In this document: one piece after another, positions 10,042-25,091 of the stretch
How the letters are laid out: the number at the start of each line of letters is the position of its first letter
How positions within the stretch are numbered: the first letter of the stretch is position 1
Origin: Listeria monocytogenes
Lineage (GTDB): Bacteria > Bacillota > Bacilli > Lactobacillales > Listeriaceae
DNA: 64,000 nt
Reading direction: 5' to 3'
Assembly (NCBI RefSeq): GCF_013282665.1
Contig: NZ_CP054041.1
Coordinates: 2,028,001 to 2,092,000, forward strand
The notes under the pieces: model-generated
Told to the model about the DNA's origin: nothing
Seen by the model: the letters and a program-made list of their open reading frames with translations, nothing else
Database searches by the model: none
Position numbers and translations under genes: made by a program

Positions 10042-10878
10042 ATGTATAAAGATTTTGCAAACTTCATCCGTACAAATAAAGCAGATTTACTAAACAATTG
10101 GATGAATGAAATGGAAAAACAATCAGATCAGCTAATCAACGACATTGCAAAAGAAGCAATGTACGAAGAAACTAGCAAAGAATTTGTGGATTTAATTGTT
10201 TCGAATGTTACCGAAAATGGCTCTAAATTCAATGAAAAACTAGATGATTTTGCAGAGAAAGTGGTCCACCTCGGTTGGCCGATTCATTTTGTCACCACTG
10301 GCCTACGTGTTTTTGGGCTTTTAGTATATACAGCAATGAGAGATGAAGATTTATTTTTAAAGAGAGAAGAAAAACCGGAAGATGATGCCTATTATCGCTT
10401 TGAAACATGGCTTTCCTCCATGTATAACAAAGTGGTCACTGCCTACGCAGATACGTGGGAAAAGACAGTTTCTATCCAAAAAAGTGCACTACAGGAATTA
10501 TCGGCACCACTTTTGCCAATATTTGAAAAAATTTCTGTAATGCCCCTAATTGGAACGATTGACACAGAAAGAGCCAAGTTAATCATAGAAAACTTACTAA
10601 TAGGCGTTGTAAAAAATCGGTCAGAAGTGGTTTTGATTGATATTACGGGAGTTCCTGTTGTTGATACAATGGTTGCGCATCACATCATTCAGGCGTCCGA
10701 AGCGGTTAGACTTGTCGGCTGTCAGGCGATGCTTGTAGGGATTAGACCAGAAATCGCGCAAACAATCGTTAACCTAGGAATTGAATTAGATCAAATTATC
10801 ACGACCAACACAATGAAAAAAGGCATGGAGCGTGCGCTAGCCTTGACGAACAGAGAGATAGTAGAAAAAGAGGGGTGA
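10042..10878 (+). CDS. rsbR: Stressosome sensor/scaffold RsbR
   Basis: 278 residues. An N-terminal non-haem globin-like sensory domain (1-135) is joined by a helix to a C-terminal STAS domain. The two threonines phosphorylated by RsbT in this family are at 175 (GTIDTERAK) and 209 (VVDTMVAHH). RsbR and RsbS build the stressosome core that sequesters RsbT until stress. The gene opens the rsb operon and overlaps the region of the rsbS start. The ribosome site GAGAAAGG lies 14 nt before the ATG. Confidence 0.96.
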
Positions 10879-10883
10879 ATACT

Positions 10884-11240
10884 GTGGGGATACCAATCTT
10901 AAAGTTAGGTGAATGTTTATTAATTTCTATCCAGAGTGAATTAGATGATCATACTGCGGTAGAATTCCAAGAAGATTTACTTGCAAAAATCCATGAAACG
11001 TCGGCCAGAGGAGTAGTCATTGATATCACTTCCATCGATTTTATTGATTCATTTATTGCAAAAATTCTTGGAGATGTAGTAAGTATGTCTAAACTAATGG
11101 GTGCAAAAGTGGTTGTAACTGGGATACAACCAGCAGTTGCGATTACACTAATTGAACTCGGGATCACGTTTAGCGGAGTACTTTCGGCGATGGACCTTGA
11201 AAGTGGTCTGGAAAAACTTAAACAGGAATTGGGGGAATGA
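10884..11240 (+). CDS. rsbS: Stressosome STAS protein RsbS, RsbT antagonist
   Basis: 118 residues, a single STAS domain. The GTG at 10884 is chosen because AGAGGGG ends 8 nt upstream; an in-frame GTG at 10875 overlaps that ribosome site. Ser56 in [10 protein letters not shown] is the RsbT-phosphorylated residue of the family. RsbS forms the stressosome core with RsbR and binds RsbT; phosphorylation releases RsbT toward RsbU. The rsbR stop lies just upstream and rsbT starts at the rsbS stop, so the genes are tightly coupled. Confidence 0.95.
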
Positions 11241-11242
11241 AC

Positions 11243-11653
11243 ATGACATTCCAATCCTGTGTAAAGATAATAAATGAATGGGACATTGTAGCTGCAAGGC
11301 AACTAGGTAGAAAAATATCCAAAGAAATTGGTTTTGGAACAGTTGACCAAGCAAGAATTACAACTGCCATCAGTGAATTAGCTAGAAATATTTTCCTTTA
11401 TGCTGGACGAGGAGAAATCTGTATTGAAAAAGTAAGTGAATCTGGTAAACAAGGAATGATTATTGTTGCCAAAGACAAAGGTCCAGGTATTGTAGACATC
11501 AGAAAAGTAATGCAAGATGGTTATACAACATCGGGCGGACTTGGAGCAGGTCTTCCAGGAGTCAAACGTTTAATGGACAGTTTTGATATTGAATCCAGTA
11601 TTGAAGGCGATTCAAAAGGAACGGTAATTACAACAACGAAATGGGTTCGGTAA
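11243..11653 (+). CDS. rsbT: Stressosome serine/threonine kinase RsbT
   Basis: 136 residues with a GHKL-type ATP-binding fold (ISELARNIFLYA as N box; KDKGPGI and GLGAGLPGVKRLMD as G1/G2). The ATG at 11243 lies 7 nt after GGGGG, whereas the ATG at 11237 is too close, so 11243 is preferred. RsbT phosphorylates RsbR and RsbS upon stress and then binds the N-terminal domain of RsbU to activate its phosphatase. In this genome that downstream partner is truncated. Confidence 0.95.
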   Translation: MTFQSCVKIINEWDIVAARQLGRKISKEIGFGTVDQARITTAISELARNIFLYAGRGEICIEKVSESGKQGMIIVAKDKGPGIVDIRKVMQDGYTTSGGLGAGLPGVKRLMDSFDIESSIEGDSKGTVITTTKWVR

Positions 11654-11669
11654 GGAGATCTAGAAAAAA

Positions 11670-12605
11670 ATGGAAAAAGCTTTTGAGGGGAAATACCGTG
11701 ATATTCTTATTCAGTATTTAGAACATCAAGATGAAGAAATTCTTTATACTTGCGAAAAATTATCCAGAGAAGCTATGGAAGAGCGAGTATCACCAGAAGA
11801 AATTGTCCATTTACATCGCTCGGTTCTTGAACTATACGGAAAAGAGTTGCCGGATTTCGTACGATTATCATTTGATGTACTACTTGAAATAATGGTAGGC
11901 TACGGCTTAGCTTATATGGAACATCTTAGTCTAAGAACCGAGCAAAAAGAATTACGTAGTGAAATCGCTCAAGCGGAAGATATGCAAAAAACGTTAATGA
12001 AAACAGAGGTACCGGAACACGATGAACTTGATTTTGGGGTTATTAGTGTCGCAGCCAGACAAATGAGTGGTGATTACTATAGCTTTACAGAAGAAGGAGA
12101 TAAACAAATCGGTATCGCGCTTGCTGATGTTATTGGTAAAGGAATTCCAGCCGCATTTAGTATTTCTATGATAAAATACGCATTAGCTGGAATGACCGGA
12201 GATGACAGAAAGCCATCTATTGTGCTTGAATCATTAAACCAAGTAGCGGAAGAAAATATTAACGACAATATGTTTATCACGATGTTTTATGGGCTTTATC
12301 ATGAAGATACATATTTGTTTGAATATGGGTCAGCTGGACATGAGCTGGGCCTCTACTATCAACATAAAGAAAACAGCTTTTCTGACTTATACGCCAAAGG
12401 TTTACCACTCGGCGTAGATAAAAATGCTGTCTACCGTCAATTTGATAAGAAAATTGAAGTGGGCGATGCCATATTTATTATGTCAGATGGTGTAACTGAA
12501 ACAAGAACTGCTAATGGTTTCATCGAACGTGAAGAATTAACGGAAATTATTGCAGCACATATTTCGTTATCAGCTGAAAAAATGGTACATGCGATTTATG
12601 ATTAA
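11670..12605 (+). CDS. rsbU: RsbV-P phosphatase RsbU, truncated by an in-frame TAA
   Basis: 311 residues instead of an expected 334. Residues 1-85 are the RsbT-binding four-helix domain. The PP2C/SpoIIE-type phosphatase domain starts near 120 with SGDYYS (Asp135), ADVIGKGIPAAF (Asp153), SAGHELGLYY and IMSDGVTET (Asp273). The reading frame stops at TAA (12603-12605), where one base change from CAA would give Gln312. After it the frame stays open for 22 codons (12606-12671), ending in TAA at 12672-12674. Those codons encode LHDDFTLICIKRTK, the DD-x-T motif that supplies a metal ligand in this family. The truncated protein is therefore probably inactive or unstable. Listeria, as I know it, lacks the second RsbV phosphatase RsbP. 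Confidence 0.92.
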   Translation: MEKAFEGKYRDILIQYLEHQDEEILYTCEKLSREAMEERVSPEEIVHLHRSVLELYGKELPDFVRLSFDVLLEIMVGYGLAYMEHLSLRTEQKELRSEIAQAEDMQKTLMKTEVPEHDELDFGVISVAARQMSGDYYSFTEEGDKQIGIALADVIGKGIPAAFSISMIKYALAGMTGDDRKPSIVLESLNQVAEENINDNMFITMFYGLYHEDTYLFEYGSAGHELGLYYQHKENSFSDLYAKGLPLGVDKNAVYRQFDKKIEVGDAIFIMSDGVTETRTANGFIEREELTEIIAAHISLSAEKMVHAIYD

Positions 12606-12761
12606 TTAGTTAAAATGCAAAATTTCGAGTTGCATGATGACTTTACGCTTATTTGCATTAAGCGAACTAAATAAGAAGAAGTGAAGACGGACCTCATTCT
12701 TTAGAGAACATTTACTGGTGAGTAAACGTATTTAAAGAGTGGAACGTTTTTATTTTTGGAT

Positions 12762-12786
12762 GTTTTAATTTTATTTGTTAGGGTAA
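12762..12786 (+). promoter_or_regulatory. SigB promoter of rsbV-rsbW-sigB-rsbX
   Basis: GTTTTA (12762-12767), a 13-nt spacer and GGGTAA (12781-12786) match the SigB consensus. It lies 37 nt before the rsbV ATG. This is the classical autoregulatory promoter of the SigB operon. It amplifies sigB once active and could partly bypass rsbU at the level of transcription only. Confidence 0.9.
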
Positions 12787-12822
12787 AATCGACAGTATAC
12801 TTAAATTAGATGGGGTGAAGTG

Positions 12823-13167
12823 ATGAATATTAGTATAGAAATAAAAGAGCGTGATACTGACCACATAGATATATTTGTTGCTGGGGAGATTGATGCTTAT
12901 ACAGCGCCAAAGGTAAAAGAAGCTCTAGAAGTGTATCAAGTAAAAGAGGGTATTGTACTTCGAATCGATTTAACAGAAGTAAGTTACATGGATAGCACCG
13001 GATTAGGCGTATTTGTAGGAGCGTTTAAAAGCTTACGTCAACGCCAAAGTGAACTTGTCTTGTTTGGTTTAAGCGACCGACTTTTCCGATTGTTTGAAAT
13101 CACAGGATTGTCAGATATCATTGAAATCAAAAATGTAGAGGGTGAAATGAATGGCAACAATGCATGA
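12823..13167 (+). CDS. rsbV: Anti-anti-sigma factor RsbV
   Basis: 114 residues, a STAS domain of the SpoIIAA family. The ATG at 12823 is preferred over the overlapping GTG at 12820, with GGGGTG as ribosome site. The phosphorylated serine lies in [12 protein letters not shown] (Ser58 by my count). Unphosphorylated RsbV binds RsbW and releases SigB; RsbW re-phosphorylates it and RsbU removes the phosphate. The gene overlaps rsbW by 17 nt. Confidence 0.95.
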
Positions 13168-13624
13168 CAAAATTACATTACAACTTCCTGCCAAGCCTGA
13201 ATATGTTAGTTTAGGTAGACTTTCATTATCAGGAATTGCAAGTCGCGCAGGATTTTCTTATGAAGCAATTGAAGATTTGAAAATAGCCGTAAGTGAAGCC
13301 ATCACTAATTCTGTAAAGCACGCATTTAAAGGAGAAGATGATGGGGAAATTACAGTAGAATATCTTATTTATGAAGACAAATTAGAAGTTCGTGTTTCTG
13401 ATAATGGAACAAGCTTCGACTTAGAAACTCGTAAACAAGAAATTGGCCCATATGAAGTAGGAGAAGATGCGGAGATGATGCGTATCGGAGGTCTAGGTTT
13501 ATTTTTAATTGAAACATTAATGGATGACGTGAAACTTTATTACGATGAAGGGGTTTCTGTCGTAATGACCAAATATATTAATGAAAAGCAGGTGGAGGAG
13601 AATGCCAAAAGTATCTCAACCTGA
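13151..13624 (+). CDS. rsbW: Anti-sigma factor and serine kinase RsbW
   Basis: 157 residues with a GHKL kinase fold: [14 protein letters not shown] (N box), VSDNGTSFD (G1) and [16 protein letters not shown] (G2). RsbW holds SigB inactive and phosphorylates RsbV. Its start lies inside rsbV and its end overlaps the sigB start by 23 nt. This keeps the ratio of kinase, antagonist and sigma factor coordinated. Confidence 0.96.
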
Positions 13625-14381
13625 TAAAGAAGCAAAAGAAAAAGTGTATATTTGGATTGCCGCTTATCAAGAAAACGGTGACGAAGATGCCCAGTATAAT
13701 TTAGTCGTTCATTATAAAAATTTAGTAGAATCGATTGCCCGCAAATATTCCCAAGGTAAATCTTTTCACGAAGATTTAGTTCAAGTTGGAAATATCGGTT
13801 TGCTTGGTGCTATTAGACGTTATGACGCGACTTTTGGGAAAAGCTTTGAAGCATTTGCTGTGCCGACGATTGTTGGTGAAATTAAACGTTTTTTGCGTGA
13901 TAAAACATGGAGCGTACATGTACCGCGTCGAATTAAAGAATTAGGTCCAAAAATTAAAAATGCCGTGGAAGAGCTAACAAGAGAATTGCAAAGCTCGCCG
14001 CAAATTAGCGACATTGCTGATTTCATCGGTGTCACGGAAGAAGAAGTTTTAGAAGCGATGGAAATGGGAAAAAGTTACCAAGCACTTTCTGTAGATCATT
14101 CGATTGAAGCAGATTCGGATGGAAGTACCATTACGTTACTTGATGTAGTTGGTGGTACGGATGATGGATTTGAGCGTGTGAATCAACGTATGCTCTTAGA
14201 GAAAGTTCTCCCAGTTTTAGATGAGCGAGAACAGAAGATTTTGCAATTTACATTTATTGAAAATCGCAGTCAAAAAGAAACGGGTGAACTACTCGATATA
14301 TCACAAATGCATGTGTCTAGAATCCAACGTCAAGCTATTAAAAAACTTCGAGAGGCGTTGCAGAATGAGGAAGTGGAGTAA
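13602..14381 (+). CDS. sigB: General stress RNA polymerase sigma factor SigB
   Basis: 259 residues. The ATG at 13602 follows GGTGGAGGAG; a longer reading from 13581 lies within rsbW and lacks a ribosome site. Region 2 is visible as [21 protein letters not shown], region 3 in the middle ([12 protein letters not shown]) and region 4 as [44 protein letters not shown] with a helix-turn-helix. It directs the general stress regulon (acid, osmotic, bile). The gene appears intact, so any defect in this strain lies upstream in rsbU. Confidence 0.97.
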
Positions 14382-14981
14382 ATGAACAAGGCAGTTGAAT
14401 CAAATAATTTATTTGTATTTCAACGTTCTAAAGCATTACAACAATACTGCGGGGATGTTTATTTTACCCATGAAGACAAAAATGGTTTTTTGTATGTTCT
14501 TTCTGATGGACTTGGGAGCGGGCTCGAAGCTAATAGAGCGGCCAAAGCGACCGTTGATGCCATAAAAGAGGATATCCATGCAGATATTACCGATATGCTT
14601 GAAAAAGCGAATCAGGCTGTTTCAGGACTTCGTGGTGCTGCGGTAGCTATTATTAAAGGTGACTACTTAACGAAGACCCTTTATTATACTGGTATGGGTA
14701 ATATTCGGTTTTATATGATTGGGATGGAAGATAAGCTTATTTTTCCGCTTTCTGGTTCTGGATTTTTGTCCGGTCGAAAACAGAAATATCGGTTGCAATC
14801 ATTTAAATATAAACCAGGCAGTAAGTTTTTAATGCATTCAGATGGACTTGTTCTTTCTCGCGTTAGAAAAAGCCTAGAATCGCCACTTTGTGTAGTGAAA
14901 ATCGGGCATTTAATCGAGCGTAATATATTAGATATTCCAACAGATGATGTTACTTTTATAGTTGGGAAATTTCCGGAATAA
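14382..14981 (+). CDS. rsbX: RsbX, feedback phosphatase of the stressosome
   Basis: 199 residues, a PP2C-type serine phosphatase. Motifs include YVLSDGLGSGLEANRAAKATV with its metal-binding Asp, FLMHSDGLVLSR, and a late IPTDDVTFIVGKF, which is the DD-x-T element that RsbU lacks here. RsbX dephosphorylates RsbS and RsbR and resets the stressosome. The ATG abuts the sigB stop, and a terminator follows. Confidence 0.95.
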   Translation: MNKAVESNNLFVFQRSKALQQYCGDVYFTHEDKNGFLYVLSDGLGSGLEANRAAKATVDAIKEDIHADITDMLEKANQAVSGLRGAAVAIIKGDYLTKTLYYTGMGNIRFYMIGMEDKLIFPLSGSGFLSGRKQKYRLQSFKYKPGSKFLMHSDGLVLSRVRKSLESPLCVVKIGHLIERNILDIPTDDVTFIVGKFPE

Positions 14982-19900: not shown

Positions 19901-20256
19901 ATGAAGGTTATCCATTTTTATAGTGAAAATGCGGACTATGGCTGTTTTTCTAATTTCTCTTTACATCCAGTTGTCATAGATGGTGTGACTTATATGACTA
20001 CAGAACACTATTTCCAAGCGTAAAAGTTTATGGATAAAAAGCTTATTAAGAAAGTAATTAATGTGAAAAAACAATTGATGTAGCAAAAGTAGAGCAACAT
20101 TCAGAAGTGAAAGAAAAACTTTTAGCCACTGGAAATGCTATTTTAGTGGAACATACGGAAAATGATTATTATTGGGGCGATGGTGGAGATGGCTCGGGAG
20201 AAAATCGTCTAGGCAAAATTTTGATGAAAGTTAGAGACGAATGGAACGCTAAATAG
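19901..20256 (+). pseudogene. Broken YbiA/NADAR-type N-glycosidase gene
   Basis: A good GGAGG and ATG at 19901 begin a 40-codon reading (MKVIHFYSENADYGCFSNF... EHYFQA) typical of the YbiA/DUF1768 N-terminus. It stops at TAA (20021-20023) where the family has Gln-Lys-Phe, so CAA to TAA is likely. A second stop follows. The family C-terminus (KEKLLATG, YYWGDGGDGSGENRLGKILM) is then found in a different frame, ending at 20256. The middle, about 30-40 residues, is missing. Functional members hydrolyse toxic riboflavin intermediates. It lies directly behind a tRNA pair, a common site of gene gain and loss. Confidence 0.85.
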
Positions 20257-24342: not shown

Positions 24343-24416
24343 GTGTTTAGTTTGGCTTGATTACTTGGAGGGAAGTCTATATACTGAAACAAACAACACA
24401 AACGAGGTGCTGGAAT

Positions 24417-25091
24417 ATGGCAGAGAAAACAATAGTAGAAAAATTACAACTGACTAAATATAAAGAAGCAGTCATCCTAAATCAACCAGATGGAGCGGAT
24501 TATTTCCAAAATCTAGCAAATTACGAAGAAAAACTAGCAGACAAACAATACGATTTAATTTTTGCTTTTGTTGAAACGCTAGAAGAATTAATTACGTTCG
24601 TGCAAAAAGTTATTGTTGAAAATAAACTTGCTGCGAATGGTTATTTATTTTTCGCCTACCCCAAAAAAGGCAATAAAAAGTTCACTACATATGTACACCG
24701 CGATGAACTCATGCCAGCGCTAAAAACCGATGAAGAAGGCTACGTGGACGGTAGCACTCTCAAATTCACGCGAATGGTCGCGCTCGATGAAACATACACG
24801 GTTGTTGGACTAAAAGAAGCAGCAAAACTAAAAGCAAAGGGCGTTAAGAAAAACAATCCTTCCGCAGATGAATACGCCGATTATGTCCCTCTTGTCGCCG
24901 AATTTTTAGCAGACAAAGATGATTTACAAGCCTTCTATAATAACTTAGCAACGGGATACCAGCGTGTTTGGGCGCGCTATATTTACTCTGCCAAACAACC
25001 AGCGACACAAGAAAAAAGACGTTTAGAAATGATTGATATTTTAAGTCAAGGTTATAAAACAAAAGATCTTTACCGCCAAGGGAAAAAATAA
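24417..25091 (+). CDS. YdeI/OmdA-like protein
   Basis: 224 residues from the ATG at 24417, which follows GAGGTG by 8 nt; the in-frame reading can be extended upstream to 24357, but without a better ribosome site. The C-terminal LQAFYNNLATGYQRVWARYIYSAKQPATQEKRRLEMIDILSQG matches the OmdA/YdeI pattern (helix, SAK-x-P-x-T-x-x-KR, helix). The N-terminal half has a DUF3052/YdeI-like region with FVETLEELITFVQKVI and YLFFAYPKKGNKKF. YdeI proteins have been called bacteriocin-protection proteins, but the function is not well established. A terminator follows. Confidence 0.7.
   Translation: MAEKTIVEKLQLTKYKEAVILNQPDGADYFQNLANYEEKLADKQYDLIFAFVETLEELITFVQKVIVENKLAANGYLFFAYPKKGNKKFTTYVHRDELMPALKTDEEGYVDGSTLKFTRMVALDETYTVVGLKEAAKLKAKGVKKNNPSADEYADYVPLVAEFLADKDDLQAFYNNLATGYQRVWARYIYSAKQPATQEKRRLEMIDILSQGYKTKDLYRQGKK

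What the first reader, a model, noticed from the sequence alone, without database searches (positions are those of the whole stretch)
12600..12674. In-frame TAA cuts off the DD-x-T motif of RsbU
The rsbU frame stops at 12603-12605, but after this single codon it continues open for 22 codons that encode the expected C-terminus LHDDFTLICIKRTK, followed by a normal stop at 12672. One base change (CAA to TAA, Gln312) explains this. The lost segment holds Asp323/Asp324 of the metal-binding DD-x-T motif of PP2C-type phosphatases, which RsbX in the same operon retains. Listeria, as known, has no RsbP, so this would disable the stressosome route to SigB while sigB, rsbV and rsbW stay intact.
Basis: partly seen in the sequence, partly recalled or inferred. 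Interest (0 to 1): 0.85.

Follow-up and report, generated by a model that had tools for sequence, protein, structure and literature searches.

The report
Stop codon breaks Listeria stress switch
In this Listeria genome a premature stop codon removes the last 22 amino acids of RsbU, the enzyme that relays stress signals, and this likely switches off the usual route to the general stress response; similar broken copies have been reported before, so this is a new example of a known thing.

Summary
The rsbU frame (from 11670) meets TAA at 12603-12605, stays open for 22 codons and stops normally at 12672-12674. Of 25 Listeria genomes, 23 have an uninterrupted rsbU; the exceptions are this genome and one with a frameshift. 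Asp323, Asp324, Phe325 and Thr326 are invariant in 25 of 25 aligned relatives, and the DD pair aligns with the DD of SpoIIE, which holds a manganese ligand. The product keeps its RsbT-binding domain but would lack the last strand and a metal site, so it would likely not dephosphorylate RsbV-P. The other seven operon genes are open, and no further RsbV phosphatase was found. The nearest precedent, RsbU Q317*, five residues downstream, was a loss of function in a natural isolate (PMC13068326). So the stop is there, but of a known kind. Two of the three nearest genomes carry in-frame stops in rsbV and sigB instead; for the rsbV one, a 2013 paper already names that gene (PMC3556495). SigB activity in this strain is untested, and sequencing error is not excluded.

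The parts
11670..12605 (+). rsbU as it stands, 311 aa; RsbU_N domain complete, SpoIIE/PP2C domain cut short
   Evidence: PF08673 profile 2-75 of 75, PF07228 profile 2-169 of 192; the profile reaches 191 only across the stop
12603..12605 (+). in-frame TAA, codon 312
   Evidence: absent from the other 24 Listeria genomes
12606..12671 (+). 22 codons cut off from rsbU: the conserved C-terminus
12636..12641 (+). codons of Asp323-Asp324, predicted metal site, untranslated here
   Evidence: SpoIIE manganese ligands from PMC3517971
12672..12674 (+). old rsbU stop
10042..10878 (+). rsbR, open
10875..11240 (+). rsbS, open
11237..11653 (+). rsbT, open
12762..12786 (+). SigB-type promoter-like match before rsbV
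   Evidence: found at the same place in the four genomes searched; the pattern itself is not enriched genome-wide (13 matches against 55 of the backwards control in G000)
12823..13167 (+). rsbV, open
13151..13624 (+). rsbW, open
13602..14381 (+). sigB, open
14382..14981 (+). rsbX, open, DDVT kept

Best explanation
An in-frame TAA at 12603-12605 ends RsbU after 311 residues and removes the last 22, and the shortened phosphatase is predicted to be inactive, so stressosome signals would likely no longer reach SigB. Shown: the stop, the conserved lost segment, the open rest of the operon, and no further RsbV phosphatase found by the SpoIIE profile. Inferred: without the last beta-strand and the Asp323/Asp324 metal ligand the PP2C domain would fail to dephosphorylate RsbV-P, so RsbW would keep SigB bound. 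The product keeps the RsbT-binding N-terminal domain, so it may still bind RsbT without effect. Also inferred: the allele is young and belongs to the known class of SigB-lowering mutations that help growth under mild conditions.
For: Stop and conserved tail. 23 of 25 Listeria genomes have an uninterrupted frame. D323/D324 invariant in 25 of 25 aligned relatives and aligned with the DD of SpoIIE, whose Asp795 is a manganese ligand (PMC3517971). In the model of an intact relative residues 325-332 are the last strand; the 311-aa product is modelled with lower confidence, including three loops near conserved aspartates. RsbU Q317* in a natural isolate: lowest inlA, gadD3 and lmo2230 transcripts, weakest acid survival, faster growth at 30 C; that strain also carries rsbX N77K, and the comparison with its rsbX-only sister isolates the rsbU effect (PMC13068326). 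Three field strains with RsbU truncations had low gadD3 mRNA (PMC7574537). RpsU is identical to five relatives, so the published rpsU bypass is absent.
Against: No phenotype or reads for this strain. SigB can be activated without RsbV in an rpsU mutant and at 4 C (PMC10977602). If the genome were FSL J1-208, which is not shown (published as 2.74 Mb), the published strong SigB-dependence of SbrE in that strain (PMC3565269) would speak against a full loss. The models rest on 25 and 26 sequences only.
Confidence: 0.82

Rival explanations
1. The TAA is an error of sequencing or assembly, or a mutation of the one culture that was sequenced, and the strain's natural population has an intact rsbU.
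For: The stop is in one genome only and the tail shows no decay. SigB-lowering mutations are said to arise readily in the laboratory (PMC13068326 introduction).
Against: Single-contig genome, completeness 99.98; the rest of the operon shows no other lesion. The known class of natural rsbU lesions makes a real stop plausible.
Confidence: 0.08
2. RsbU is dead, but SigB is still switched on by another way, so the stress response is largely kept.
For: RsbV-independent activation of SigB is published for an rpsU mutant and at 4 C (PMC10977602, passages). A SigB-type promoter match before rsbV is kept.
Against: RpsU is identical to five relatives. No private change in RsbV, RsbW or SigB. The SpoIIE profile finds no further phosphatase than RsbX and a 252-aa PP2C, and the same three kinds of match occur in all five genomes scanned.
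Confidence: 0.1
3. The 311-aa protein keeps enough PP2C activity to work.
For: Two metal-site regions (MSGD, SDGVTE) and the whole N-terminal domain remain.
Against: The DD pair and the last strand are missing; a stop five residues further on was a loss of function (PMC13068326).
Confidence: 0.04

Closest known systems
RsbU Q317* of L. monocytogenes MQ140025 (PMC13068326, passages and introduction read)
   Same: nonsense codon late in rsbU, just before the DD motif, in a natural isolate; published as a loss of function
   Different: five residues further on; that strain also has rsbX N77K; here rsbX is open and no phenotype is known
RsbU frameshift truncations of field strains (PMC7574537, passages read)
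   Same: natural rsbU loss with low SigB output
   Different: those stop early, at codon 16 or 109; here only the last 22 residues are lost
rsbS, rsbV and rsbU lesions of reference strains (PMC3556495, passages read)
   Same: SigB-activating genes broken in sequenced reference strains
   Different: the paper speaks of deletions and gives no phenotype in the passages I saw
RssB of E. coli (PMC12143880, passages read)
   Same: PPM domain lacking its C-terminal part and therefore inactive, regulatory N-terminal part kept
   Different: RssB is an evolved adaptor; here the frame is freshly cut and no new function is shown

Membership tests
RsbU (stressosome-controlled PP2C phosphatase of RsbV) | RsbU_N domain (PF08673) | tested here: met
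   profile 2-75 of 75
RsbU (stressosome-controlled PP2C phosphatase of RsbV) | complete SpoIIE/PP2C domain with the C-terminal DD-x-T | tested here: not met
   profile 2-169 of 192 in the 311-aa product; DD lies behind the stop
RsbU (stressosome-controlled PP2C phosphatase of RsbV) | place between rsbT and rsbV in the sigB operon | tested here: met
RsbU (stressosome-controlled PP2C phosphatase of RsbV) | dephosphorylates RsbV-P when bound by RsbT | not testable with these tools
   no assay; predicted lost
natural rsbU loss-of-function allele | frame interrupted where relatives are open | tested here: met
natural rsbU loss-of-function allele | lowered SigB output | not testable with these tools
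   inferred from Q317* (PMC13068326)
RsbP bypass (energy-stress phosphatase of B. subtilis) | a further SpoIIE-profile protein with a sensor domain besides RsbU and RsbX | tested here: not met
   3 profile matches in G000: RsbU, RsbX and a 252-aa PP2C; that the last is the Stp-type phosphatase is recalled, not searched

The most novel reading that the evidence does not exclude
The trimmed RsbU is not merely dead: keeping its dimerising, RsbT-binding half, it could act like RssB as a pseudo-phosphatase that soaks up RsbT, a dominant lock on the stressosome pathway that a plain loss of rsbU would not give.
Probability: 0.04. Interest if true: 0.65.

Novelty: new member of a known kind. Interest (0 to 1): 0.27.

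Why it matters
If true, the genome that stands for its species in the set searched would have a disabled stressosome-to-SigB pathway. With G018 (rsbV stop) and G017 (sigB stop), three of the four closest representative genomes would lack the normal stress switch, each through a different gene. Comparisons of stress survival based on such reference strains could mislead. It also fits the published view that SigB is kept in the long run but is often lost for a short-term growth advantage (PMC13068326 introduction).

Tried and rejected
Chance open frame after the stop: rejected, since the 22 codons match relatives with silent changes only. Read-through or a suppressor tRNA: not tested genome-wide; the five tRNAs of the window have ordinary anticodons. 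Compensation in rsbW or rpsU: none found. A second RsbV phosphatase: none found by the SpoIIE profile. Relaxed selection: not seen; one private residue in the operon proteins, His215 to Tyr in RsbU.

Lesion-hotspot test: in four close genomes 3 of 32 SigB-operon gene copies are broken, against 2 or 3 of about 207 other gene copies of the window region (my count), Fisher p 0.018 or 0.033. The two outside lesions are the 19.9-kb gene of G000 and one gene of G019; the doubtful third lies at a stretch edge of G018. The test is post hoc and small. Across the wider genus other genes are broken too: sulP in G024, tex in G004, alr and tex in the draft G007; G011 has no readable sulP. The draft G001 (89% complete) has split rsbR, rsbW, rsbX and tex and was left out as unreliable. 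G006 rsbX and G005 tex run off the fetched stretch. Activator genes against brakes, 3 of 24 against 0 of 8, gave p 0.55.

Structure matches show the PP2C fold only. Papers asked for but not held. Malformed requests.

Full report
What is there. The window lies in a 2,787,956-base single-contig genome. G018 has exactly the chromosome length printed for L. monocytogenes ATCC 19117 (2951805; PMC3556495, table passage). The genome is therefore taken to belong to the L. monocytogenes group; this is inferred, and the strain is not identified. The operon rsbR-S-T-U-V-W-sigB-rsbX lies at 10042-14981.

The stop. Codon 312 of rsbU is TAA (12603-12605); 22 codons are then open to the old stop at 12672-12674. 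In the 25 genomes (the window's included) 23 have an open frame of 335-342 aa; G000 has the stop and G015 a frameshift near codon 177. After the stop the window differs from its three nearest genomes at 3 silent and 0 replacement codons; before it, at 34-53 silent and 2-4 replacement codons. The other seven operon genes align to six relatives without gaps, and no stop falls in the window's copies. Against 14 close relatives the operon proteins (RsbU to residue 311) have one private residue in this genome, Tyr215 of RsbU. This is the picture of a young stop in an otherwise constrained operon (inference).

What is lost. Asp323, Asp324, Phe325 and Thr326 are invariant in 25 of 25 aligned relatives (G003 and the frameshifted G015 were not in that alignment). 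HMMER aligns this DD with the DD of the SpoIIE phosphatase domain in 5mqh, 3t91 and 5ucg. SpoIIE binds manganese through Asp628, Asp746 and Asp795 (PMC3517971, passages); that the first D of the pair is Asp795 is my count from the construct ends. In the model of the intact L. marthii protein residues 325-332 form the last strand. The window's 311-aa product is modelled with lower confidence (mean 70.1 against 80.2), under 50 at 77-95, 97-112, 128-134, 156-160 and 274-279, the last three near conserved aspartates. Both models rest on shallow alignments. The intact model matches PP2C structures including SpoIIE and RsbX.

Consequence. RsbT released from the stressosome activates RsbU, RsbU dephosphorylates RsbV, and RsbV draws RsbW off SigB (PMC13068326 introduction). 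Without RsbU activity RsbV would stay phosphorylated and SigB bound. The closest precedent is RsbU Q317*, five residues further on, in a clinical isolate that also has rsbX N77K: lowest inlA, gadD3 and lmo2230 transcripts, weakest acid survival, faster growth at 30 C, and called a loss of function by its authors (passages). Three field strains with RsbU truncations and one with a larger operon deletion had low gadD3 mRNA (PMC7574537, passages). SigB can be activated without RsbV at 4 C and in an rpsU mutant (PMC10977602, passages), but RpsU here equals that of five relatives. I found no second RsbV phosphatase, in line with a review that says RsbPQ homologues are absent (PMC7358398, passage). 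Against a full loss: if the genome were FSL J1-208, SbrE is strongly SigB-dependent in that strain (PMC3565269, passages); identity is not shown.

Wider pattern. The survey also found an in-frame stop at codon 60 of rsbV in G018 and at codon 189 of sigB in G017. A 2013 paper already names rsbV of ATCC 19117 among SigB-related lesions, with rsbS and rsbU of two other reference strains; it calls them deletions (PMC3556495, passage). The protein database holds RsbU forms with late or middle frameshifts (P0002, 310 aa, named L. monocytogenes; P0016 and P0018, 274 aa, unnamed) and one with an internal duplication (P0001): I read 6 of the 120 listed of 1461 hits. A 2026 paper cites no premature stop in rsbW among 22,340 genomes (PMC13101537, passage). 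So activators of SigB break repeatedly. My own four-genome comparison is too small to prove a hotspot.

Verdict. The possible added value is that three of the four closest representative genomes carry a broken SigB-activating gene. I saw no paper that says this of species representatives in the listings of my ten searches or the passages I opened; these cover open-licence papers only.

Noticed in passing
L021 and L046 (G018), rsbV: In-frame stop at codon 60 of rsbV; G018 has the chromosome length printed for ATCC 19117, for which a paper names rsbV as affected.
   Followed up: yes
L054 (G017), sigB: In-frame stop at codon 189 of sigB.
   Followed up: partly
L043 and L075 (G015), rsbU: Frameshift near codon 177 splits rsbU in another Listeria species.
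   Followed up: partly
G018:C1:1910866-1911168: A further STAS-domain frame of 278 aa in G018 contains one TAA.
   Followed up: no
12312-12314: RsbU residue 215 is Tyr here and His in the 14 close relatives compared, the only private residue of the operon proteins.
   Followed up: partly
L063 (G013), rsbU codon 134: Ser replaces the Gly of the conserved MSGD next to a predicted metal aspartate, at the place of SpoIIE Gly609 by my reading.
   Followed up: no
13500-14100: The sigB 5' half is nearer L. farberi and G012 (95-99%) than the nearest genomes (90-93%), which suggests recombination.
   Followed up: partly
19901-20250: A gene intact in G019 (146 aa) is interrupted here, and a second, 187-aa gene further on in G019 was not seen; the NADAR/YbiA name is recalled.
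   Followed up: partly
L051 5223-5896 (G019): A gene that is open in the window (24357-25091) is split into two overlapping frames in G019.
   Followed up: no
P0001: A public L. monocytogenes RsbU of 369 aa carries an in-frame internal duplication of about 35 residues in the PP2C domain.
   Followed up: no
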